A DNA stretch of 64,000 nucleotides, from contig NC_035924.1 of assembly GCF_000348985.1 (NCBI RefSeq), positions 372,001 to 436,000 on the forward strand, read 5' to 3'. The notes beneath the pieces are model-generated. The model saw nothing but the letters and a program-made list of their open reading frames with translations, ran no database searches and was not told the DNA's origin. The stretch is from Huiozyma naganishii CBS 8797. Its lineage: Eukaryota; Ascomycota; Saccharomycetes; Saccharomycetales; Saccharomycetaceae. Both the position numbers and the translations under genes were made by a program. Positions 37,079 to 64,000 of this stretch are shown here, piece after piece; the stretch's first letter is position 1, and every line of letters begins with the position of its first letter.

Positions 37079-40000
37079 TCATAAAGTGGAGTATATGGCT
37101 TCCCGGACTTTGTACTCCTCGTTGAGATCTTCGATCTCTTCCCAATTCCCGATAATGTCGTCCCGGCCACGCACAACAGCAGGCAGCAGTCTCCCGCGGC
37201 TGTACGTCTTCCACACTTTCCTTGCCTCGTCATCCGTCCCGAGATCCCGGTACGTAAACTCTACCTTGTTCGCTGTGAGGATCGTAGCAAGACGGTTTGT
37301 GCGCGGGATCATGTGGAACCCGCCGCCAGCAAGCGACGTGTAAATGTACACAGGCTCCTTCGACAGCATGGCAGTGATATCGCTCTGTTTTATGACCGTA
37401 GGGGAGGGTTCCGCCACTGGAGTTTGGGGATTCCCGCTGCGAGGTTTATCTTCTTTATCTAGCGACTGAGCCAATGCATTCAATTCAGAGTCGTCCACCA
37501 TTTCCAGTTCTTTTAAAAAAGCGTCTGTTTCAGCAAATAGTTCGTCTAGCGTTGATTTGGTATTGCTCTTTGTGGCAGGCTTGGTCTCCATTTCCGGAGG
37601 GGAGTCGCCCAGGGAAAGCTCTTGCGTTTCATCGTCCTTTAAATCTTGGGTTGCTGTGTCGCTTTCTTGGGGGATGGATTCACTTTTAGCGTCAACAGAT
37701 TTCAGCTCTGTTGAATTCGCTTCTTCTACATCTTTACCCGTCGTTGGGTGAACATTGTCCAACTTAGGTTTTTCTGATGCACGTTCTTTGGTACGTTTCT
37801 CATCGTCAATGACTTCTTTGTCCAGTGGCAGAGTTGTGTCACTGGATGTTGGTTCTGATTCTGTATCTTTGCGGGAGGTTTCAACATCTTTTTCGCTCGT
37901 TGCATCCCCTGTAGTATCTAAAGGCATTATCTCATTATGTGCTTGCTCTGTTGCATTTTTTTCCAATTCTGGGTCATCGGTGATAGAGTTTTCATCTGTT
38001 ACAGTTAAAACTGGCTCTGTTCCTTGTGATACATTTTCCTCTGTAGTAAAGGCCTTATCTGGGGTCTGGCTTGATTCCCCGGTCGCATCTTCCCTTTGAG
38101 ATATCTTTTTCTCTGAATCGCTCACCTTGTTATCACTAGCGACAATATCTGAGCCACCACTCTCTTTTGTGTCATCGTTTTGGGAATCTATTTCAGAAAC
38201 GTTTATAGTTGCTTTTTGATCATCTTCCTCTTCAGTGACAGATTCAATTGCTTTCTTCGTGATGTCATTCTTGTTCTTTGCCGTGACATCCTCTGTTTCT
38301 CTCTCAATTGCATCACCCTTGTCTTTTTCAGCAGCACCGTCAATTTCTTTCTCTTTCATACCACTCTTGTCTTCTTCGGTGACATTTTCCATTTCTTTCT
38401 TCTTGGTACTATCTTTGCTTTCTTCTATGATACTTTCCGCTTCATCGTTATTGGTAATATTGTCAATTTTTTCTGTAACATCATGGTTTTCTTTCTTCAC
38501 GGTCCCATCTTTGTTCCCTTCAGACACACCTTCCTTCACTTTCTTTTTGGTATCATTCTCGTCTTCTTCTATTATGTTATCCCGTTCTTTGTCAATGCAC
38601 TGTTCCTTCTGTCCCTCTGGCAACTTACTCTTTTGGACATTCGTATCCAACTTAGAAGATATATCCAATGCTCCTACATTAGCTTTTGTCATGGTAGTGG
38701 ATGGTTTTGTCGTGACAAAGTCTGTCTCAACTTCCCTAGCTTTCTTGGTAAGGTTTTCGTCTTTCTTCTCAGCGTTTATTACCTCCTCTTGTTCGTCGGT
38801 GTTCTCAAACTTTACGTCATCCTTAGATGCATCATTCACCATGTTTCCGCTTTCAGATTCGTCTGATCCGTGCTTCCATTCAATGTTGGTTTTTTTGATT
38901 TCAGAGAATACTTTTTCAGCCAACTGTGGCTGATTTCTGATTCCTTTTTCCTTTGATTTGTCAATTGAATCACTTAAATCGTTATCTTTGCCAGTACTTG
39001 AATTTTGTTCAGGATCTAACTCCTCTATATCATGCGGTTTTGGGGACGGATGCTGTGTCTTTTCTGCTAATTCTTCACTTGCTGTTCCTTTAGGTTCATT
39101 TGGCGTCGTATTACTGTCGTCGTTATGCACTATTTGTGCGCTATCTATCAATTTTTTTTCTCCGGTGGTAGCCTGTTGTAAGTTAAAGGCGAAGTCTTTT
39201 ATAACTGGTGACTTACTCAACCCCTTTTTCCGTAATGTGCTAATTCTTGACTTTGCTGCAAGATCAGTACTAGAATCGATAATCTTCTCTGTACTGCCTT
39301 GCTTTGGCAAGTCCGCGGCAGTTACACTTTCTAGTTTTGACTCTTTCAGAGTCGCAGATCTTGACAGATCTTGGGTCTCTAAAGAAGCCGCCTCTTTGTT
39401 TGGGATGTTCAACGTTGTTGGTGAGAGTTTCTCTTGTTCACAATTTGGTTCCACAGAAGAACTATCCTTAGTTTTGGATGAAGTCGCAATATTTGATGTG
39501 TCTTTCGCATTCTCAGCATTGGATCCAAAGTCAACTTTAGACTCCATGGAATTCTTCTCTGTAGTAGCGTCCGCAGTATTGGTCTTATTGGAAAATATCA
39601 CAGGGTCATCCTTCACAGTAGGATTTTGTTCACTGTTGCCCTTCTGCGCTGTGTCCGAGGGAGTGGTAGGATCAAGCACAATCTCCCGATCATCAACCTT
39701 TCTATCATTTTCCACAATGGCAGGGTTGGCTTCCTTCACCATAACGCCACTTTGGTCGTTTCCTAGGGTTTTCGGATTCTCGATTGTGTCAGAGCTTTCT
39801 AAGTCATGTCCATTATCATTTTTGTGGGAATCGGTTTCCACTAAATTAACTTTAACTGGTTTATCAGCACTTTCTTTCAAAAGGCTGTTCAGATTAACAA
39901 TTGCAGATGTCTTTTGTATTTTTTTGTTCTCGTTATCATTCGTATTGGGAATTAAAGATTCTACAACGGTAGATGTCGATTCTTTGGTCTTTTCATTTGG

Positions 40001-40210
40001 AATTTCGTCTCCAGTGGCAGTAACACTCTCCTCCAAGTTTTCTTTCGTCTTCTTCTTCTTTTTCATCTTCTTGCCTTTCTTCTTTGACTTTTGGTTCTTT
40101 GCTCGAGAGTTCAGAAACTCCGCAGTAACTGAATCAGTAGCATTAATCAAGGCTTCCAAATCCAAAGTACCTGGCGAGTTCTTCGAAATCTCCGAGCTTA
40201 CCGTGTCCAT
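37079..40210 (-). CDS. AIP5: Aip5-like actin assembly protein with glutaredoxin-like end
   Basis: Aip5 (YFR016C) is a polarisome-associated protein that promotes actin nucleation. This homolog is 1043 residues (S. cerevisiae 1233). About 900 residues are highly charged and disordered, rich in Glu, Lys, Asp, Ser and Thr. Near the start is a very basic stretch (KKKGKKMKKKKKTKENLEE). Around residues 540-660 an 18-20 residue unit of the form EE-DK-KK-E-VTEE repeats imperfectly about six times. The last 110 residues form a glutaredoxin-like fold (PVYIYTSLAGGGFHMIPRTN, RKVWKTYSRGRLLPAVVRG, GNWEEIEDLNE) with no CxxC or CxxS cysteine at the active position. The frame opens further upstream at a TTG; the first ATG gives MDTVSSEISKNSPGTLD. 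GSY1 is its neighbour, as in S. cerevisiae. Confidence 0.9.
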   Translation of the reverse strand: MDTVSSEISKNSPGTLDLEALINATDSVTAEFLNSRAKNQKSKKKGKKMKKKKKTKENLEESVTATGDEIPNEKTKESTSTVVESLIPNTNDNENKKIQKTSAIVNLNSLLKESADKPVKVNLVETDSHKNDNGHDLESSDTIENPKTLGNDQSGVMVKEANPAIVENDRKVDDREIVLDPTTPSDTAQKGNSEQNPTVKDDPVIFSNKTNTADATTEKNSMESKVDFGSNAENAKDTSNIATSSKTKDSSSVEPNCEQEKLSPTTLNIPNKEAASLETQDLSRSATLKESKLESVTAADLPKQGSTEKIIDSSTDLAAKSRISTLRKKGLSKSPVIKDFAFNLQQATTGEKKLIDSAQIVHNDDSNTTPNEPKGTASEELAEKTQHPSPKPHDIEELDPEQNSSTGKDNDLSDSIDKSKEKGIRNQPQLAEKVFSEIKKTNIEWKHGSDESESGNMVNDASKDDVKFENTDEQEEVINAEKKDENLTKKAREVETDFVTTKPSTTMTKANVGALDISSKLDTNVQKSKLPEGQKEQCIDKERDNIIEEDENDTKKKVKEGVSEGNKDGTVKKENHDVTEKIDNITNNDEAESIIEESKDSTKKKEMENVTEEDKSGMKEKEIDGAAEKDKGDAIERETEDVTAKNKNDITKKAIESVTEEEDDQKATINVSEIDSQNDDTKESGGSDIVASDNKVSDSEKKISQREDATGESSQTPDKAFTTEENVSQGTEPVLTVTDENSITDDPELEKNATEQAHNEIMPLDTTGDATSEKDVETSRKDTESEPTSSDTTLPLDKEVIDDEKRTKERASEKPKLDNVHPTTGKDVEEANSTELKSVDAKSESIPQESDTATQDLKDDETQELSLGDSPPEMETKPATKSNTKSTLDELFAETDAFLKELEMVDDSELNALAQSLDKEDKPRSGNPQTPVAEPSPTVIKQSDITAMLSKEPVYIYTSLAGGGFHMIPRTNRLATILTANKVEFTYRDLGTDDEARKVWKTYSRGRLLPAVVRGRDDIIGNWEEIEDLNEEYKVREAIYSTL

Positions 40211-40684
40211 TCTCTTATCTCTTTTGTCAGCAATATTGAAACGATTCTGAAAAATAAAAGAATGCTTGTTGAAGCTTTCCTTGTGGGCTTTGTATATAAG
40301 CCAAGAACACTTATTAAAGTACAGTTTCTTTCTGATCACTCTGTATAACAATCAGAACTTCAGAGGGAGGCATATTTTACCCTGTTCGACATCTGTTTGC
40401 TAGGTTTAGCAGTGTACAAAAAAGGAACAAAAGAGAAAAATACGCTTCATATTCAAAATGAGTTACCCGTAATACAACGGTATACCACCTCAAACGTTAT
40501 TCAAGGCACTGTGTGGATGAATCCGAGTCCTATATGCCATGTTAGTAATTCCCCAGGTGCTTTTAAAGTCACCACGGGATTTTGGTCTGTGGGTGGTATT
40601 CTTTTTTGTTTATTTAAAGTGGGTGGAATGGTGAACAAGATACCACAATATGCAGTGTATAAATGGCTATGTTAAAGTATATAA
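40211..40684. promoter_or_regulatory. AIP5 upstream and RCY1 downstream region
   Basis: About 475 bases. The AIP5 frame stays open through 141 bases upstream of its ATG without another ATG. A 92-codon plus-strand frame (40397-40675) shows no recognisable motifs. This gap is also a synteny breakpoint between the YFR016 and YJL204 segments. No repeat or RNA gene was found at the breakpoint. Confidence 0.35.
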
Positions 40685-54734: not shown

Positions 54735-57437
54735 ATGAGATTTTCCCATTTCCTGAAATACAATGCTGTTCCGGAATGGCAAAATCAGTACATGGACTAC
54801 AATGCTCTGAAAAATCTGATTTACACTCTGCAGACTGATGAGCTTCACGAGGATGAGCAGCCCGTGGGAAGTTCACTCGAGCAAGCAAAACCGTCGTGGA
54901 AGAATAAATTCTCCTTCAGGGGTAAGAAAAACGGGTCCGCAAGCTCTGTACCCAACGCCAATAAGCAGTTTGACTCGTCAAACCGCGAGGATACAGTTTT
55001 GGAACAAACTTTCGAGTTGAAAGATTTTGAAGAGATAGACCCGGAGTCACTTGCTGGGCCAGACAAAGGTAAACTCTACCCTCGAAAAATGAATGCCTTC
55101 CAAAAAGTGAAGGGTAAGTTTTTTGATTCGTCAAGGCGAAGATCGTCATCTGGTTCCAACTTCTCCAAGAAAACCATGGTCGATATCCAGGAAACGTTCG
55201 TTGATGATTTGGTAATTGAAAGATTCAAAGTCGACGATTTTTACAAGAGAACAGAGGCGAAGTTCTACCTTAAATTCGAGAAACTGGTTCAAGATTTGAT
55301 GAAGGAGGGGTTAATTGCACCCTCCAACGACTTCGCCGCCGCCGCATCCACATCGTACAGTTCCCCAGAAAATGTCGAAAACAATCTAGTGGTAGAGGAG
55401 ACATTTGAGGACGACGACGATGATGTGATGGAGAATGATGAATTTGCTGATACGCCAGAAAATACAGCGTTACTGCATCATTCTGAGTTCACTGTCAAAT
55501 CGCAAACGAGATCTTTCTTGAAACAAAACATCATCAACTTGTACATCGATTTGTCGCAACTGAAGGCCTTCATCGAACTTAATAAAATGGGGTTCAGTAA
55601 GATCACAAAGAAGGCCGATAAAGTGCTGCATTTGAACATTAAGGCCGAGTTGATCCAAACAGGGGAGTTTTACAAGGAAACTTACATTTTCCAAAAGGAC
55701 ACATCTGTGAACTTGAGTGCTAAACTTACGCAACTGGTTCAGTTTTTCGCCATTATCACCAATAGGTCCGAAGACGTGGCTCTGGCAAAGCAAGATCTGA
55801 AGTCAAGTCTGCATGATCACATTGTCTGGGAGAGGAGCAATATCTGGAAGGATATGCAAGGTCTTCTAAGTCAAGACAACCAGCTCGTTACGGACTTGAA
55901 TGTCAACGATCCAAATATCAGTCTCGAGGGTAAACTACAACTGGAGTACTTCAAATATCCTTTGCCAAAGGAAATTAATCTAAAATGGACCACAATCAGT
56001 AGCATTTGGATCCCTAAATTGTTCTTTACCTGGAAGGCTTTCAAAATTGCATTTATCATTATGGCAACCGGTATTCTCTTAGGTGTCAAAACATTCAATG
56101 ACCCAGCACAACACAGATGTATGGCTTTGGTGGAGTGTGTCGCTTTTTTATGGGCCAGTGAAGCCCTGCCTCTTCATATCACTGCATTTTTGGTTCCGCT
56201 ACTTGTAGTATTATTCAAAGTTTTGAAGGATGATAAAACGGGTGTTGTCTTACACGCTGCTGCTGCCTCTTCCAAAATCCTGTCTACCATGTGGTCATCT
56301 ACAATTATCATCCTCTTGGCTGGTTTCACACTTGGTGAAGTATTGGCACAATATAATATCGCAAAAGTGGTGGCCTCGTGGATTCTAGCAGCTGCCGGTA
56401 CCAGGCCACGGAACGTCCTCTTGGTGGCCATGTCAGTTGTCTTTTTCCTTTCAATGTGGATTTCGAACGTTGCAGCCCCCGTGTTGACGTATTCCTTGTT
56501 AAGCCCTGTATTGGACACACTAGAGGCAGACCAACCGTTTGGTAAAGCCCTCGTTTTAGGTGTTGCTATCGCAGCCAATATCGGCGGTATGTCCTCTCCA
56601 ATCTCTTCCCCACAGAACATTATCTCTATGGCCTACCTAAAACCTTTTGATATCGGGTGGGGCCAATTCTTTGCTATCGCCCTTCCAACCGGTATCATCG
56701 CTATGTTATGTTGCTGGGTTCTATTGTTTATGACTTTCAAGATCAACACTACGAAGTTGGAAAAGTTCGTCCCCATCAGGACAAAATTCACTCTGAAGCA
56801 ATGGTTTATTATCGGTGTTACCATTGCAACAATTATCCTATGGTGTGTGGAGTCTCAAATCGAGAGCGCGTTTGGGTCTTCTGGTATTATTGCAGTGCTT
56901 CCAATCTGTATATTTTTTGGTACAGGATTGCTATCAACCCACGATTTTAATACGTTTCCGTGGTCAATCGTTCTATTGGCTATGGGTGGTACTGCGTTGG
57001 GTTCAGCTGTTGCCTCCTCGGGTCTGCTATCCACAATTGCTAGGGCTTTACAGAAGAGGATTTTGCATGATACCGCATTGGCTGTTCTTTGTATATTCGG
57101 GGCTTTGATGTTAGTTGTCGGTACCTTTGTTTCACACACTGTTTCGGCCATTATTATCATCCCATTGGTCAAAGAGATTGGTGACAAACTCACAGACCCA
57201 AAGGCAGCACCATTGTTGGTTTTTGGCTGTGCATTATTGGCTTCCGCTGGTATGGGTCTGGCATCGTCCGGTTTCCCTAATGTCACTGCCATTTCAATGC
57301 TTGACAAAAAAGGGAACAGATATTTGAGCATGGGCACTTTCATTTCAAGAGGGGTTCCATGTTCTATCATAGTGTTTGTTTGTGTTATCACAATCGGATA
57401 CGGTATTACGATATCTGTTGTCAAACCAGTTAGTTGA
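54735..57437 (+). CDS. PHO90: Low-affinity phosphate transporter Pho90 (SPX plus DASS)
   Basis: Pho90 and its paralog Pho87 take up phosphate at the plasma membrane with low affinity. The product is 900 residues (S. cerevisiae Pho90 881, Pho87 923). The amino SPX domain senses inositol polyphosphate and begins MRFSHFLKYNAVPEWQNQYM, continuing to FYKRTEAKFYLKFEKL and ending with helices near residue 390; acidic and Ser-rich inserts lie between. From about residue 430 there are some 12 membrane segments of the divalent anion:sodium symporter family, with the conserved ILGVAIAANIGGMSSPISSP-type loop and a second related loop SAGMGLASSGFPNVTA. Neighbours ACO2 and UBP12 favour PHO90 (YJL198W). Confidence 0.95.
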   Translation: MRFSHFLKYNAVPEWQNQYMDYNALKNLIYTLQTDELHEDEQPVGSSLEQAKPSWKNKFSFRGKKNGSASSVPNANKQFDSSNREDTVLEQTFELKDFEEIDPESLAGPDKGKLYPRKMNAFQKVKGKFFDSSRRRSSSGSNFSKKTMVDIQETFVDDLVIERFKVDDFYKRTEAKFYLKFEKLVQDLMKEGLIAPSNDFAAAASTSYSSPENVENNLVVEETFEDDDDDVMENDEFADTPENTALLHHSEFTVKSQTRSFLKQNIINLYIDLSQLKAFIELNKMGFSKITKKADKVLHLNIKAELIQTGEFYKETYIFQKDTSVNLSAKLTQLVQFFAIITNRSEDVALAKQDLKSSLHDHIVWERSNIWKDMQGLLSQDNQLVTDLNVNDPNISLEGKLQLEYFKYPLPKEINLKWTTISSIWIPKLFFTWKAFKIAFIIMATGILLGVKTFNDPAQHRCMALVECVAFLWASEALPLHITAFLVPLLVVLFKVLKDDKTGVVLHAAAASSKILSTMWSSTIIILLAGFTLGEVLAQYNIAKVVASWILAAAGTRPRNVLLVAMSVVFFLSMWISNVAAPVLTYSLLSPVLDTLEADQPFGKALVLGVAIAANIGGMSSPISSPQNIISMAYLKPFDIGWGQFFAIALPTGIIAMLCCWVLLFMTFKINTTKLEKFVPIRTKFTLKQWFIIGVTIATIILWCVESQIESAFGSSGIIAVLPICIFFGTGLLSTHDFNTFPWSIVLLAMGGTALGSAVASSGLLSTIARALQKRILHDTALAVLCIFGALMLVVGTFVSHTVSAIIIIPLVKEIGDKLTDPKAAPLLVFGCALLASAGMGLASSGFPNVTAISMLDKKGNRYLSMGTFISRGVPCSIIVFVCVITIGYGITISVVKPVS

Positions 57438-57788: not shown

Positions 57789-60700
57789 ATGGAGAAAAGT
57801 GACGAGGAGGGGTTGAATTTCAATAATCAAATCCACAACACTACCACCAATGAAAAAGATATAAGTGAACGCGTGGCATCTCCACCTTCGCCGAGTGCTG
57901 AAGACTCTAGTCACGAAGATACCAACTCATCAAAACAGGTTGAAGATATACGCACTGATATTGGGAGACAAAGAGAAACAATTGCATTTCTTCTGGAAAA
58001 CAGCAAGCGGAATGAAAAAGAGGGCAATAAGGTCTACATAATACCGAAATTCTGGTATGATAATTTTTTCAACAACGATATAGATGAGCCCTCAATGCTA
58101 GGCCCAATTGACACTCAGTTGATTGTCAAGGACCATGAAAACTTTATCTTGAATAGTTATGATTCATGCCCATATATTTCCATTCCAGAGGAGATATTCA
58201 ATAGCTTTGTTGAATGGTATGGACTGTCAGAGGGATCGCAACCAGTCTCGACTGTGTTGGTTACAGATTCAACGAATGGTACACTGATAACGGAATACAA
58301 TAAACCTTGTTTCAAATTACAGTACTTGATCAATCCAGATCAGAAGTCTAGAGTATTCGATAACCATCATCCCGGTCCACTTTATACTTGTGTCTCGGCC
58401 TCAAAACTATCCTCAATAGGTGATGCACTGGAGCAAGCTTTAGGTAACTTTTTCAAAATTGAAACACATCTAACTGTTGATAACAGCAAAGTCAACGTCT
58501 GGCTGGTAAAGAATTTATCAGAGGAAGAAATAACACTATCTGAGCCGTATCTGATAAACCCTATGCAGTTTTTATTTTATCCAGAAAAAATCAAAGTTAC
58601 TGATGATATACTTTCAAAGTCGTTAAGAGAATTGGACATTTTGAATGGTATTTTTATTATAGAAACAAAGCGCCGTTCACGGAAAACAAAACAGCATTGG
58701 GCGTCAAACTATTTCCATTATAATAAACTTAACAGGTCAACGGGCACCATAGGTTTGTCAAACCTTGGTAATACATGTTATATGAATTCTGGTTTGCAAT
58801 GTCTGGTGCATATTCCTCAGATCAGGGACTATTTTGTTTATAACGGGTTTGAAAAAGAAATCAACGTAAATAACCCTTTGGGATTTCAGGGCCATATGGC
58901 TCGTTCGTTCCATGGGTTGATTCAGAGTTTATTTGGAGACAGTATAGCCCCTTTTCCGTCGTACGTGTCTCCAACGCACTTTAAGTCCACCCTTGTCCAC
59001 TTTAACTCGATGTTTTCAGGCTTCCAGCAACAAGACTCTCAGGAATTTTTGGCTTTCCTTTTGGATAGTTTGCATGAAGATCTAAATAGAATTGTGGAAA
59101 AACCCTATGTGGAAAAACCGTCATTGAAACCAGGTGACGATATAAATGATTTTGATACCATTAAGAAGTTAGCGAATGAAACGTGGAAATCTCATTTAAT
59201 GAGGAATGACTCCATAATCACAGATATTTTTGTTGGGATGTATAAATCCACGCTAGAATGTCCCGAATGTTCCAATGTTTCAATTACATTTGATCCTTAT
59301 AACGATTTGACTTTACCGCTCCCAATAAATTCCTCCTGGAATGCCCAGGTTAGAATCTTCCCATCAAAATTGCCTCCGTGCATGATAGAGGTGGAGTTGC
59401 CCAAAGCTTCTACATATCAAGACTTGAAAGAGTACGTTGCCAAATGTTTGGGTATGAATGCCCAAAATTTGTATGGCTGCGAGGTGTTCAACCATCAATT
59501 TTACAATAACTTTGAGTCTCCTGACTCAACTGCTCAATATCTGCCAATTTACGAATTGATATCTGAATCCGACATTGTCGTATTTTATGAACTGGTTTCA
59601 GAACCGGGAGATTTGATTATTCCTGTGCTTAATGCGATATCAAATAAAGAATCTAATAATGACAGTCTTTTTGGTGTTCCATTCTTTATAACAATAAAAG
59701 CGGCAGATGTAAATAATATTACTTTGCTCAGGCACAAATTGGAAAAGGAATATATTAATCTCAGTGGTGGATACGTTTCACCTAAATCCACTGAAAACAA
59801 CGAGATAAAGGATATTGCAGCTTTCCCGCTGTTGCAAGAGAAGTATCCAGATGTTGACTTTAAGGAATATACAGATATTTTACAATATGCCACCCAATAT
59901 GATGACAGTACGAATCTCCCTGAAAAGCCTTTGTTTGAAATTAGAATTATAGAGACAGAAAGGAGCACTTCGTACATGAAAGAAAACGTTTCGGGAGAGC
60001 CAATAGAATTGTGGACGCCAAGGGCCCACTTAAATTTGGCCTTGGCTCAAGATATTACCGATAAGGTAGATGCTGTAGTCAATGATATCTTCAACTACTC
60101 CAACATGCTAATTACAAAACAACAGGAAAAGGGGACGGTGCCAAATAATAGCTTGGAACCAATGGATATTGATAGTTGTTCTGTTTTAGAAAACTGTAGC
60201 GACAAGTCAGAGAGCTTTACAAACCTAGGATCTATCACAGAAGAAGCTTGTAATGAATTTTTAAACGAAAAAACAGAAAGTGGTGCCTTATCAGACACTA
60301 CAGTGATTACGCCACAGAGTCTGTTGGTATGTTATTGGTCGAAGGAAGTAGCAGATGAAGTGTTTTCGCATGATAATGTGGTCAATTGGGAGAATCCCGG
60401 AAAAATTTCAAATAAAGAACTTGAATCAATTAAACTAGCAGAATCAGCTCACGTGGAACAAGAAACAACGCTGAAAGATTGTTTGAACCTCTTTTCAAAA
60501 AAGGAAGTTTTAGGAATGAGCGACTCTTGGTATTGCCCAAATTGTAAGGAACATAGACAAGCTACTAAAAAGATTGAACTTTGGAACACACCAGACGTTT
60601 TTCTGATTCATCTTAAGAGATTCGAAAATACCCGATCATTTAGTGATAAGATTGATGCAACAATTCTCTTCCCCATTGAAGATCTCGATATGAGCGAATA

Positions 60701-61484
60701 CTTGGTGTACAAAGATGATCCACGGGGTAGTGTCTATGACTTGATAGCTGTTGACAACCATTACGGTGGTATGGGCGGTGGTCACTATACTGCTTATGTG
60801 AAGAATTTGACTGACCAAAATTGGTATTATTTTGATGACTCTAGAGTCTCGAAGACGTCTCCTGAAAAAAGCATTGCCGGTTCGGCCTATCTACTGTTTT
60901 ATTTGCGTCGTGGAAGCTTAAATAATATTGACAGTAAACGGCTAAAAGATATTATAGATACTTCAAGAAGTGAGCATGAGATCCAGATACAAACGTTGTA
61001 TACTAAACAGGAGGAGCTTTACGAAGTGAACGAAAGCAGCGGTGCTTCCGAAGATGAACAAGAAGATGAAGAGAACTCAGATACAGCTAAGGAAGACGAT
61101 GGAAACTCCGACAGCGGAAGTGACGACAATCCTGTTAGTAGTACTGGAACTGAGAGCATGGATGGTTTTTCTCAAGATGAGGTCAGTGTCCCGGTTGAAA
61201 ACGAAGAAAATATTGCAAAAACAAACACAGAGGATAGGAGTGATACAAATTACTACACAGAAAGCCTCGATGTAGGGCAAACTGATCCGGGGAATGCCTC
61301 CGTTAATAGTAGTGACAACGTAGAAAAACGGAAGAAACGATTGTTAAACAAAGTTTATTCTGATAAACTCTTGAATTCATCATCAGAATCCTTGGAACGC
61401 TCGGAAAACGGAGACACTGAAAGCGTTGCTTCAATTAGGTCGGGTGGAGAGCGTGTTCCTGTTTTAGACTCCTTGTATGCTTGA
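57789..61484 (+). CDS. UBP12: Ubiquitin-specific protease Ubp12
   Basis: Ubp12 is a cysteine deubiquitinase of nucleus and cytoplasm, related to human USP4/15; it is 1231 residues here (S. cerevisiae 1254). A DUSP domain lies at about residues 75-200 (VYIIPKFWYDNFFNNDIDEP, VKDHENFILNSYDSCPYISI). The catalytic core starts with GLSNLGNTCYMNSGLQCLVH, with nucleophile Cys330, and QQDSQEFLAFLLD. A long insert (about 570-870) contains the UBL-like region. The zinc ribbon has CPECSNVSITFDPYNDL and YCPNCKEHRQATKK. The His box GGMGGGHYTAYVKN gives His999, and NWYYFDDSRVSK follows. The last 200 residues are acidic and disordered. Position after PHO90 agrees with YJL197W. ELO1, which follows in S. cerevisiae, is absent. 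Confidence 0.96.
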   Translation: MEKSDEEGLNFNNQIHNTTTNEKDISERVASPPSPSAEDSSHEDTNSSKQVEDIRTDIGRQRETIAFLLENSKRNEKEGNKVYIIPKFWYDNFFNNDIDEPSMLGPIDTQLIVKDHENFILNSYDSCPYISIPEEIFNSFVEWYGLSEGSQPVSTVLVTDSTNGTLITEYNKPCFKLQYLINPDQKSRVFDNHHPGPLYTCVSASKLSSIGDALEQALGNFFKIETHLTVDNSKVNVWLVKNLSEEEITLSEPYLINPMQFLFYPEKIKVTDDILSKSLRELDILNGIFIIETKRRSRKTKQHWASNYFHYNKLNRSTGTIGLSNLGNTCYMNSGLQCLVHIPQIRDYFVYNGFEKEINVNNPLGFQGHMARSFHGLIQSLFGDSIAPFPSYVSPTHFKSTLVHFNSMFSGFQQQDSQEFLAFLLDSLHEDLNRIVEKPYVEKPSLKPGDDINDFDTIKKLANETWKSHLMRNDSIITDIFVGMYKSTLECPECSNVSITFDPYNDLTLPLPINSSWNAQVRIFPSKLPPCMIEVELPKASTYQDLKEYVAKCLGMNAQNLYGCEVFNHQFYNNFESPDSTAQYLPIYELISESDIVVFYELVSEPGDLIIPVLNAISNKESNNDSLFGVPFFITIKAADVNNITLLRHKLEKEYINLSGGYVSPKSTENNEIKDIAAFPLLQEKYPDVDFKEYTDILQYATQYDDSTNLPEKPLFEIRIIETERSTSYMKENVSGEPIELWTPRAHLNLALAQDITDKVDAVVNDIFNYSNMLITKQQEKGTVPNNSLEPMDIDSCSVLENCSDKSESFTNLGSITEEACNEFLNEKTESGALSDTTVITPQSLLVCYWSKEVADEVFSHDNVVNWENPGKISNKELESIKLAESAHVEQETTLKDCLNLFSKKEVLGMSDSWYCPNCKEHRQATKKIELWNTPDVFLIHLKRFENTRSFSDKIDATILFPIEDLDMSEYLVYKDDPRGSVYDLIAVDNHYGGMGGGHYTAYVKNLTDQNWYYFDDSRVSKTSPEKSIAGSAYLLFYLRRGSLNNIDSKRLKDIIDTSRSEHEIQIQTLYTKQEELYEVNESSGASEDEQEDEENSDTAKEDDGNSDSGSDDNPVSSTGTESMDGFSQDEVSVPVENEENIAKTNTEDRSDTNYYTESLDVGQTDPGNASVNSSDNVEKRKKRLLNKVYSDKLLNSSSESLERSENGDTESVASIRSGGERVPVLDSLYA

Positions 61485-61811
61485 TTTTCGAGTAGTTTAC
61501 TGGAATAAGCGGTACTATATAGGGGTATAATGCATTCCGTACGAGTCAAAGGTTAGTTTGACGTCGTTGTATTATAGTATTGTATTTTTTTTGTTCATGC
61601 TATATGATAGTATTATATGCGTCTAACTGGCTACTTATTATCGGTTGGTGTTTGAAATTAAAGGTGATCGGGGTTTGAAGACTGCGATACATTGGACGGA
61701 GATGAGTTGATTTGAGCTACCAAGATTTCAGACCCTTTTCATACTTTATAACTTTAAATTTCACCAGTATATTTTACAGCAATTCTATTCAAATGATACT
61801 TCCATGTTGTT
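61485..61811. other. UBP12 downstream region, possible further SNT1 decay
   Basis: About 330 bases between UBP12 and the recognisable SNT1 remnant. On the minus strand a short frame at about 61664-61737 reads SEILVAQINSSPSNVSQSSN, which may be decayed SNT1 sequence but cannot be matched. The carboxyl half of SNT1, several hundred codons, would not fit in this space and has been lost. Confidence 0.3.
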
Positions 61812-62196
61812 TTACTCTTTGTATTCTCGTCCTGCTGTTTGGTCATTAAGTTCCTGACATTTTTTTCTTTGGGCTCGTTTGATATTTTGGTCTTTAATAA
61901 GTTTCTTGTAGTCAACAATGCTTTTGGTACGGTAATAATGGAGAATACAATCTTCAGCACTCCTCATTCCCCCCATCAAAGTTGAAATTTTACCAAATTT
62001 TTTGGGGGATATCAAATATGCAGCGACAAATGAATTGTGTTCTTTAGGTGAAAAAGTATCTAGTGTCTAAAATTATTCGAGCGGACCAGGTATTTTTATC
62101 GGTCACCAACTTGCAAACATATTTAAGAGCAATTCTATTTCGTTTGATCGTGTTTGGAAGCATACATGGGATGTTTGCAGCCATCATATTATATCT
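61812..62196 (-). pseudogene. SNT1: SNT1 remnant: pre-SANT and SANT domain with frameshift
   Basis: Just beyond the stop of the upstream frame, the same frame continues RYNMMAANIPCM...KRNRI and VCKLVTDKNTWSARIILD, then shifts by one base at a T5 run near 62050. The next frame gives FSPKEHNSFVAAYLISPKKF and GKISTLMGGMRSAEDCILHY, then YRTKSIVDYKKLI, and stops at 61812. This is the SANT domain of Snt1, the NCoR/SMRT-like subunit of the Set3 histone deacetylase complex. The order of pieces, the strand and the neighbours all fit the second copy of SNT1 (YCR033W) left by genome duplication. Lesions seen: one in-frame TAA, one frameshift, and loss of the carboxyl half. Confidence 0.85.
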
Positions 62197-63567
62197 TTAA
62201 AGAGGGTCTATTTCTAATAGCACATCTTCCAGTTCTGCATCATCCACGTAGTCTGCGCGAGAGATTTTTGTCGGAGAAGGCAAAGACCTCGAGTTGTTTA
62301 TTTTAGTATCACGCAATATAGCCGCTCGGGGTTTGTAAATACGATGCCGGATCTTCTCGCTTATTTTATCATTTCTCTCACACATTTGAAACCATTTTGA
62401 TCGCGCTCCCTCTGTTTCTTTTTCTCTTTGTTGAAGCTTGACGAGAAAGTCCTTTTGCAATAGTTTTAGAATCATGCTTACCTTTAAAACATCGTTTTGG
62501 CGAGTCGTTCCACGAGCGTTGCACTTGAAGAATGGATAATCCTTTAAGCGTTTTATTGTTTTTTTACGTGGGTACTTTGGTCGGACAACTTGATTGGTTT
62601 TCATCATGGCCTTCAATTCCATCAGTTTTGTTTCAACTCTTCCAAGTGGAAAAATACAAGTTGTTGGTGGGAAACAGGTCGCTTCAAAACCAACAATACG
62701 AGGTGCAGCCAATAACTTTTTAATGTTAGTTCTCAGTAATGATGGATCACTAACATATTCGTAATTTGTTTTCAAAGATGTAGCGTTCCGATCATCAATG
62801 TGTGTGTGAGGCTGCACATCTAAAATATAATCATCGGTTATGCTAAGTAAATGTGCTTCTGATGATGATGAGGATGATGATGCAATACTAACATTGGAAG
62901 TATGTTTGCTACACGTGTCTTCCGTACTGTTCAATTCACGGGGTAAGAAATTGGTAGTATCTAACTCACGTTGACTTTTTGTTTCTTTTACCGAGTATAT
63001 CAGGCTTGATGGCGCGTTGAGTTGTCGCTTTGACGAACGTTCGTGATTTCTTTTCATCTGCAACAATTTGTGAGCTGTTGATTTTACATGGGGAGGGCAA
63101 TTCTCATTTCTTTTGAACTTGTTAAACTTTTTATTATAGCATTTATCGTCTTGTAATAGATATGGAACCCTCGTTCTGTTATAATCTGGTCTGGATAAAA
63201 GTGTCGGATTTTCAGAGTAATAGAAAGACATGTTGGATCTCCCTTTGTGACTACCCTTATGCAAAAATCTAGAATGTTCAAGTAGGCAATTAGAATGATA
63301 TCTGCTTAATTCTTTCAATTGGGTAGAGTGGAATTGAGATGGCGTAAAAGACTGACTAGTCGGTCCATTGGAATAGGTTCCCTTATTTCTGCAGGTCGAT
63401 TTATTCGGTGAATTTGGGGCGCTTTTATCCCATGAATTTATGTGTCGTTGTACGCCATTGTATATCTCACTGCTGTTACAATCATAACACCTTGGATTAC
63501 AATAGCATGTATTTCTTTGGAACCTGTAATGCGCCTTTTGTGGCCTCCTTTGGGAGCCTGCGGACAT
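62197..63567 (-). CDS. SNT1: Amino-terminal half of Snt1, truncated ORF (probable decaying gene)
   Basis: The 456-codon frame starts at an ATG (MSAGSQRRPQKAHYRF) and is rich in Asn, Ser, Arg and Tyr, as the Snt1 amino end is. Its carboxyl third matches the conserved Snt1 region before the SANT domain: SLLRTNIKKLLAAPRI, CIFPLGRVETKLMELKAMMK, RLKDYPFFKCNARG, a helical linker, and SRADYVDDAELEDVLLEIDP just before the stop. S. cerevisiae Snt1 is 1226 residues, so under 40% is in this frame; the missing part continues directly downstream as a broken remnant. It may be a pseudogene or may still yield a short protein lacking the SANT domain. It is on the strand expected from the YCR033/PHO87 and YJL197/PHO90 duplicated blocks. 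Confidence 0.75.
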   Translation of the reverse strand: MSAGSQRRPQKAHYRFQRNTCYCNPRCYDCNSSEIYNGVQRHINSWDKSAPNSPNKSTCRNKGTYSNGPTSQSFTPSQFHSTQLKELSRYHSNCLLEHSRFLHKGSHKGRSNMSFYYSENPTLLSRPDYNRTRVPYLLQDDKCYNKKFNKFKRNENCPPHVKSTAHKLLQMKRNHERSSKRQLNAPSSLIYSVKETKSQRELDTTNFLPRELNSTEDTCSKHTSNVSIASSSSSSSEAHLLSITDDYILDVQPHTHIDDRNATSLKTNYEYVSDPSLLRTNIKKLLAAPRIVGFEATCFPPTTCIFPLGRVETKLMELKAMMKTNQVVRPKYPRKKTIKRLKDYPFFKCNARGTTRQNDVLKVSMILKLLQKDFLVKLQQREKETEGARSKWFQMCERNDKISEKIRHRIYKPRAAILRDTKINNSRSLPSPTKISRADYVDDAELEDVLLEIDPL

Positions 63568-63956
63568 TGATCCTTGAAAAAGGTGGAGGTAACACCCTTA
63601 TCGCAAAGATATCACAATCTGCAACCCTTTAGCCACGCAGTTGTCTATACTGAGTGCTATCGGTGGATGTGAGAATGCTGTATAAGTGTTATATAGTAGG
63701 GCTTAAAGTGGATTCACAAATTGTATTTTATTCGTATTCAGTGATAAGCAAATTGATGGCAGGTTCCCACAACTCGGACTCAGTTATCAAATCGCGGCGG
63801 TAACGCGTCCTTTCTGTCAGACTTTTTATAACAGGGTCTCTCAAGATCATCTCCCGAATATATATACCCAGTTTAAACTTGGTGCTGTAAATGCAACATA
63901 TACACTTGAGGGGGATAAACTACAACAAAAAACAGAAAGTTTGCTTTAGTACTTTC
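63568..63956. promoter_or_regulatory. Upstream region of SNT1 remnant and of the gene at the right edge
   Basis: About 390 bases. A TATATATA box at 63858-63865 lies about 95 bases before an ATG at the right edge, with an ACAACAAAAAACAGAAAG leader typical of well-transcribed yeast genes. No other feature was recognised. Confidence 0.4.
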
Positions 63957-64000
63957 ATGACACCGGCATCTAACGCATCCTTCCTACTTTTCCGAGTGGC
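63957..64000 (+). CDS. Possible start of a plus-strand gene cut by the window edge
   Basis: An ATG near the right end is followed by 14 open codons reading MTPASNASFLLFRV. The upstream TATA box and A-rich leader suggest a real promoter. Too little is visible to name the protein, and the frame could close just beyond the window. Confidence 0.3.
   Translation, partial: MTPASNASFLLFRV

What the first reader, a model, noticed from the sequence alone, without database searches (positions are those of the whole stretch)
61812..63567. Decaying second copy of SNT1 caught between loss and function
The minus strand carries an open 456-codon amino half of Snt1, an in-frame TAA right after the motif DDAELEDVLLEID, then the pre-SANT segment in the same frame, a one-base shift at a T5 run, and a recognisable SANT domain before the next stop. 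The carboxyl half is gone. In S. cerevisiae, SNT1 lies by ELO2 and PHO87 on chromosome III and the sister region on X has ELO1, UBP12 and PHO90; here it sits beside UBP12 on the expected strand. Relics of duplicated genes usually fade beyond recognition, so either the loss is recent or the short amino half is still under selection.
Basis: partly seen in the sequence, partly recalled or inferred. Interest (0 to 1): 0.85.

Follow-up and report, generated by a model that had tools for sequence, protein, structure and literature searches.

The report
Freshly broken spare copy of SNT1
A yeast still carries, in recognisable but broken form, the second copy of a chromatin-repressor gene that came from an ancient doubling of the genome, and its lost part is still so well preserved that the break looks young.

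Summary
Minus strand 62197-63567 is an open 456-codon frame homologous to the amino half of Snt1. A TAA (62197-62199) stands at an otherwise invariant Tyr codon; homology continues in frame to 62053, shifts at a T5 run, and ends with a SANT segment near 61,850. The genome is Huiozyma (Kazachstania) naganishii CBS 8797. A full 1391-aa SNT1 lies on the same contig beside ELO2 and PHO87; the broken copy lies between UBP12 and CDC6, so it is the genome-duplication partner. ELO1 and the carboxyl half are both missing there; one deletion could explain both.

The copy evolved four to five times faster than SNT1. Relative to the same columns in 64 Snt1 sequences, the part after the stop has not measurably decayed more than the part before it (32 of 41 invariant sites kept, against 21 of 29; branch ratio 1.1, bootstrap 0.66-2.0). 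So the break is recent, or partly a sequencing artefact; special preservation of the amino half is not shown. The stop falls just before the deacetylase-binding DAD, so any product lacks that module. I read it as an ohnolog dying late: uncommon, of a known kind.

The parts
62197..63567 (-). 456-codon open frame, amino half of the second SNT1 copy, with its TAA stop
62197..62199 (-). in-frame TAA at the codon aligned with Tyr695 of the full Snt1 (Tyr in all of the 64 sequences that have a residue there)
62053..62196 (-). in-frame continuation, 48 codons, homologous to the pre-SANT part of the DAD
   Evidence: SMRT DAD match on the full copy
62051..62055 (-). T5 run at which the reading frame changes
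61815..62054 (-). SANT segment in the shifted frame; stop at 61812-61814; homology ends near 61,850
61485..61811 (.). remaining gap to the UBP12 stop, where ELO1 and the SNT1 3' half would be expected; no convincing relic of either
57789..61484 (+). UBP12 (DUSP + UCH), convergent neighbour
54735..57437 (+). PHO90 (SPX + CitMHS)

Best explanation
It is the genome-duplication partner (ohnolog) of SNT1 at the PHO90-UBP12-ELO1-CDC6 locus. It stayed a protein-coding, constrained but fast-evolving gene for most of the time since the duplication and was broken recently. Proposed order: a deletion removed ELO1 together with the SNT1 3' half (SANT2 and tail), leaving amino half + DAD/SANT1; then a nonsense change just before the DAD, and a frameshift if real, cut off the DAD. 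The remaining ORF probably has no lasting function and will decay. Shown: identity, location, lesions, missing parts, similar conservation on both sides of the stop. Inferred: single deletion, order of events, lack of function.
For: Full SNT1 (1391 aa, named Snt1p KNAG_0C00870) at C3:154836-159011 between a BEACH protein (BPH1) and ELO2, RRP43, a PfkB kinase and PHO87. The broken copy sits between UBP12 and CDC6, then a TPT transporter, SOP4 and an S8-family gene, the chromosome X order of S. cerevisiae (recalled). Coding signature after the stop: mismatches to SNT1 at codon positions 1/2/3 are .52/.33/.62 (48-codon piece) and .33/.29/.70 (SANT piece). Sites at least 95% invariant in 64 Snt1 sequences: 21 of 29 kept before the stop, 32 of 41 after (Fisher p 0.78). 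Branch of the short copy relative to the rest of the tree: 0.0915 before, 0.1016 after. ELO hits in the genome form three genes: ELO2, and two that are 64% identical to each other, 41-54% to ELO2, and sit in ELO3-type neighbourhoods; none is at the ELO1 position.
Against: No strain or sister species could be compared, so 'recent' rests on conservation alone. By piece, the copy's relative branch is 0.078 (A1), 0.43 (A2, 27 columns just before the stop), 0.134 (48-codon piece) and 0.085 (SANT), so the 48-codon piece alone is faster than A1. The frameshift could be a base-calling error. The tree places the copy only weakly (support 58), and an AU test does not reject it as sister of the genome's own SNT1 (p 0.079). 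Absence of stops in 456 codons would also fit continued selection.
Confidence: 0.6

Rival explanations
1. The 456-aa product is a working protein: a Snt1 piece that still joins Sif2/Set3C through its amino half but lacks the module that activates the deacetylase Hos2, so it competes with full Snt1 (a built-in dominant negative) or has a DAD-free role.
For: No stop or frameshift in 456 codons although protein identity to SNT1 is only about 28-31%. The stop is 6 residues before the stretch that matches the SMRT DAD (P0004 701-793 to 4a69_C). In SMRT the TBL1/GPS2 sites lie amino-terminal to the DAD, and the DAD recruits and activates HDAC3 (PMC3315023, passages). If the whole ORF were neutral, zero stops bounds neutral divergence at about 0.047 per site.
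Against: The part after the stop is as well preserved as the ORF, so the ORF gets no special credit. The near-invariant RRRN patch just before the stop is lost. The same review says other SMRT/NCoR regions were reported to recruit HDAC3 without activating it, so deacetylase contact might not be fully lost. No transcript data; Sif2 binding by this region of Snt1 was neither tested nor found in the papers seen.
Confidence: 0.22
2. Sequencing or strain artefact: the frameshift, and perhaps the stop, are errors or a private allele of CBS 8797, and the living gene encodes amino half + DAD + SANT1 (about 580 aa).
For: The shift is at a homopolymer run; ELO2 in the same assembly is split between frames beside C5 and G5 runs; a Roche-454 assembly of Naumovozyma castellii had 184 flagged frameshift sites (PMC3507789, passages). 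Downstream constraint is not measurably reduced.
Against: A nonsense substitution is not a homopolymer error; eight other runs of 5 or more inside the ORF, and four in the SANT segment, cause no shift. That this assembly is 454-based is recalled, not read.
Confidence: 0.13
3. Ancient relic: the gene died soon after the genome duplication and the remains are what neutral decay left.
For: Long branch (2.64 substitutions per site), 28-31% identity.
Against: No lesions in the ORF, coding signature and 32 of 41 invariant sites kept after the stop.
Confidence: 0.02
4. Recent segmental duplicate of the genome's SNT1 rather than an ohnolog.
For: AU test does not reject a sister grouping (p 0.079).
Against: It lies at the sister locus; third codon positions differ at 0.62-0.70 from SNT1 in the downstream pieces.
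Confidence: 0.03

Closest known systems
SNT1 (YCR033W), subunit of the yeast Set3C deacetylase complex; here the full copy KNAG_0C00870
   Same: Amino half, pre-SANT and SANT1 homologous; same strand logic and order of neighbours
   Different: Only one SANT piece, behind a stop and a shift; no SANT2 or tail; RRRN patch lost; four to five times faster evolution
SMRT/NCoR corepressors (DAD bound to HDAC3, PDB 4a69)
   Same: The segment after the stop in the short copy corresponds to the stretch of the full Snt1 that matches the SMRT DAD
   Different: In the short copy that segment is outside the open frame
Pseudogenes of ohnolog pairs in post-duplication yeasts (PMC2876123: four in S. cerevisiae and C. 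glabrata)
   Same: One partner intact, the other broken by stop, frameshift or truncation
   Different: Here a 456-codon frame is still open and the lost domain is hardly decayed; the four published cases were not examined here beyond that section

Membership tests
SNT1 ohnolog (genome-duplication pair) | Homology to SNT1 | tested here: met
SNT1 ohnolog (genome-duplication pair) | Lies at the sister locus with paralogous neighbours (PHO87/PHO90, ELO2/ELO1) | tested here: met
   PHO90, UBP12 and CDC6 flank it; SNT1 has ELO2, PHO87; ELO1 itself is missing; S. cerevisiae order recalled
SNT1 ohnolog (genome-duplication pair) | Gene tree splits the copies at the duplication | tested here: inconclusive
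   long branch; weak support; AU p 0.079 for sister of own SNT1
Working Snt1/SMRT-type corepressor | DAD (pre-SANT + SANT1) in the open frame | tested here: not met
   stop aligned to Tyr695, DAD match 701-793
Working Snt1/SMRT-type corepressor | Second SANT domain and tail (SANT2 columns filled in 64 of 64 Snt1 sequences) | tested here: not met
   no convincing match up to UBP12
[quoted passage not shown]
Pseudogene | No transcript/protein, no selection | not testable with these tools
   no RNA, strain or sister-species DNA held

The most novel reading that the evidence does not exclude
A DAD-less Snt1 made by domain loss from an ohnolog is a working antagonist of the Set3C corepressor: it keeps the part thought to contact Sif2 and lacks the deacetylase switch. 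Before that, the lineage ran for a time on a second, separate Snt1 that lacked SANT2, a 'mini-Snt1' stage not seen in the 64 Snt1 sequences compared, all of which have SANT2.
Probability: 0.15. Interest if true: 0.65.

Novelty: new member of a known kind. Interest (0 to 1): 0.4.

Why it matters
Most lost duplicates of the yeast genome duplication vanished by deletion; a survey of eight yeast genomes named only four pseudogenes formed after it (PMC2876123, section 25). A copy caught soon after it broke lets one time the event, separate the order of deletion, nonsense and frameshift, and ask whether a corepressor part without its deacetylase module can persist. Strains and sister species would settle it directly.

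Tried and rejected
Intron bypassing the stop: rejected; none of four branch-point words and, of four 5' splice words, only one GTATGC were found in the locus, and the segment aligns as coding. Gene conversion refreshing the SANT piece: rejected, third positions 0.70 different. ELO1 or the SNT1 3' half moved elsewhere: the other two ELO genes sit beside a RhoGEF (ROM2 type) and an HSP70 (SSQ1 type), the ELO3 neighbourhood (recalled), and are closest to each other; no SNT1-tail match at E 0.01 or better in L018-L020; the genome search with S. cerevisiae-like Snt1 found only the two loci on C3 (best candidates only). ELO relic in the gap: the best match is 23 aa of an ELO3-like protein, E = 0.004 against that 369-base stretch alone, on the plus strand where ELO1 should be on the minus; taken as chance. 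My first scan of the gap printed a cut list, so one search replaced it. Relatives of the short copy in the protein collection: only itself at 250-798 aa; two full-length Snt1 at 605-1925 aa. Both searches need shared 5-residue words, so fast-evolving second copies in other yeasts could be missed. Whether the 456-aa protein is annotated could not be seen, because the tool hides names for proteins of the window. No Rfam match over the gathering score at 60500-64000; ARAGORN found no tRNA in the window; the bacterial promoter scan is not meaningful for yeast. dN/dS was not computed: third positions are saturated against the only other copy whose DNA was at hand. Paper searches that gave nothing to the point: (no paper).

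Rows dropped before counts: 64 of the 81 proteins were used (they include the genome's own SNT1); the 17 most distant (P0066-P0082) were left out. ORF residues 1-260 kept 6 of 12 invariant sites and were left out of the before/after comparison because their alignment is poor; with them it is 27 of 41 before the stop. The 13 residues after the SANT homology kept 2 of 6, and the stop codon itself is one further lost site; with all these it is 34 of 48 after the stop.

Full report
What is there. The window is G000:C3:372001-436000 of a 10,845,821-base genome in 13 contigs. The full SNT1 of that genome is listed as Snt1p KNAG_0C00870 of Huiozyma naganishii CBS 8797 (also known as Kazachstania naganishii, recalled; lineage). 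The minus-strand ORF 62197-63567 codes for 456 aa. It matches the full SNT1 over residues 164-455 (BLASTP 6e-20, 28% identity; genome search 6.6e-18, 31%). Its first 163 residues align only weakly. After the TAA, 48 codons continue the homology in frame; at the T5 run the frame changes; the SANT segment follows, 47% identical to SNT1. A shuffled control of the downstream piece (500 base shuffles, three frames) reached at most 4.6 bits, against 114.6 for the real SANT frame.

Which gene it is. The full SNT1 lies at C3:154836-159011 beside a BEACH protein, an ELO gene, an RNase PH protein, a PfkB kinase and an SPX/CitMHS transporter, i.e. BPH1-SNT1-ELO2-RRP43-RBK1-PHO87 in S. cerevisiae names (recalled order). 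The broken copy lies between UBP12 (DUSP, UCH; after PHO90) and CDC6, followed by a TPT transporter, SOP4 and an S8-family gene, the order PHO90-UBP12-[ELO1]-CDC6 of chromosome X (recalled). So the two loci are the two tracks of the genome duplication. The gene tree is not decisive: the copy has a branch of 2.64 and joins the Torulaspora group with support 58; the alternative of a sister to the genome's own SNT1 is not rejected (AU p 0.079), while a place with this species plus the Arxiozyma group is borderline (p 0.048).

What is missing. ELO family hits in the genome are four, in three genes: ELO2 (in two frames) and two others. The two others are 64% identical to each other over 294 residues and 41-54% to ELO2, and sit in ELO3-type neighbourhoods. 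No ELO gene lies between UBP12 and the copy, and the stretch 61482-61850 holds no convincing remnant of ELO or of the SNT1 tail. SNT1's 3' end and ELO1 should be neighbours there, so one deletion could have removed both. This is inference.

Has the lost part decayed? In 64 Snt1 sequences (of 81 found; the genome's own SNT1 is one of them), sites at least 95% invariant are kept at 21 of 29 in ORF residues 261-456 and 32 of 41 after the stop (Fisher p 0.78). The SANT part alone keeps 21 of 25, and its four changes are L to M, P to A, V to I and K to I. Wider counts: 27 of 41 before the stop if residues 1-260 are added, 34 of 48 after it if the stop site and the 13 residues beyond the SANT homology are added. 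On a fixed tree, the copy's branch divided by the rest of the tree is 0.0915 before the stop (176 columns) and 0.1016 after it (114 columns); the ratio is about 1.1, bootstrap median 1.21 with 95% at 0.66-2.02 (40 replicates each). By piece the values are 0.078, 0.43, 0.134 and 0.085 from 5' to 3', so the fastest piece is the short one just before the stop. The genome's own SNT1 gives 0.0191 and 0.0239, so the copy evolves four to five times faster in both parts. Against SNT1, codon positions 1/2/3 differ by .52/.33/.62 and .33/.29/.70 in the two downstream pieces, the mark of long coding constraint and of no recent gene conversion. If every change at invariant sites after the stop were neutral, the free period would amount to about 0.11 substitutions per site (upper 0.21); if the whole ORF had been free as well, the absence of stops limits it to 0.047. 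These bounds are rough: they use simple mutation models.

What the break does. The stop aligns to Tyr695 of the full Snt1; the match to the SMRT deacetylase-activation domain bound to HDAC3 (PDB 4a69) covers residues 701-793 (profile E = 1.7e-12). In SMRT the DAD recruits and activates HDAC3 and the sites for TBL1/TBLR1 and GPS2 lie amino-terminal to it; other regions were reported to recruit HDAC3 without activating it (PMC3315023, passages read). Yeast SET3C has Sif2 as TBLR1-like and Hos2 as HDAC3-like subunit (PMC13385800, passages). So a product would be a corepressor piece without the deacetylase-activating module. In Fusarium, loss of a carboxyl tail of Snt1 (SANT domains kept) increases its contact with the deacetylase (PMC9728937, passages including the abstract); that is a different truncation. 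Just before the stop the near-invariant RRRN patch has already been lost, which suggests altered function or relaxed constraint before the break.

Artefact question. ELO2, 280 kb away, reads in two frames beside C5 and G5 runs, so homopolymer errors are likely in this assembly. The T5 frameshift may be one. The nonsense codon is not of that type. Eight other runs of five or more in the ORF leave the frame open.

Literature. Searches for SNT1 with ohnolog or Kazachstania (14 papers with at least two of the three terms, none of them with SNT1), K. naganishii with pseudogene and whole-genome duplication (2 papers), and gene relics (15 of 22 papers listed) gave no account of this copy in the listings. 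Yeast genome databases with annotated ohnologs were not available, so it may well be annotated there. Pseudogenes formed after the genome duplication are few: four in S. cerevisiae and C. glabrata (PMC2876123, section 25).

Verdict. A real second SNT1, from the genome duplication, that stayed a coding gene until recently and is now broken. Uncommon and useful, not a new kind.

Noticed in passing
L004:2435-3424 (G000:C3:153504-154231): ELO2 reads in two frames, the break lying beside C5 and G5 runs; probably base-calling errors, otherwise the species would lack an intact ELO2 as well as ELO1.
   Followed up: partly
L018:8179-9150 (C4) and L020:4454-5557 (C2): Two ELO3-like genes, 64% identical, one beside a RhoGEF (ROM2 type) and one beside an HSP70 (SSQ1 type), each followed by a long BED-finger-like ORF: apparently ELO3 kept in duplicate while ELO1 was lost.
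   Followed up: partly
62260-62271 (short SNT1 copy, residues 433-436): The near-invariant RRRN patch before RADFVDD is replaced, although most of the RAD.VDD..LE.VLL.IDP motif after it is kept.
   Followed up: no
37079-40210 (-) with 38262-38933 and 39405-40250 (+): A 1043-codon ORF with two long open frames on the opposite strand (223 and 281 aa); likely a compositional effect.
   Followed up: no
L020, about 2080-2180: A listed minus-strand ORF (2071-2535) contains a run of X residues, i.e. a stretch of N upstream of the HSP70 ORF.
   Followed up: no
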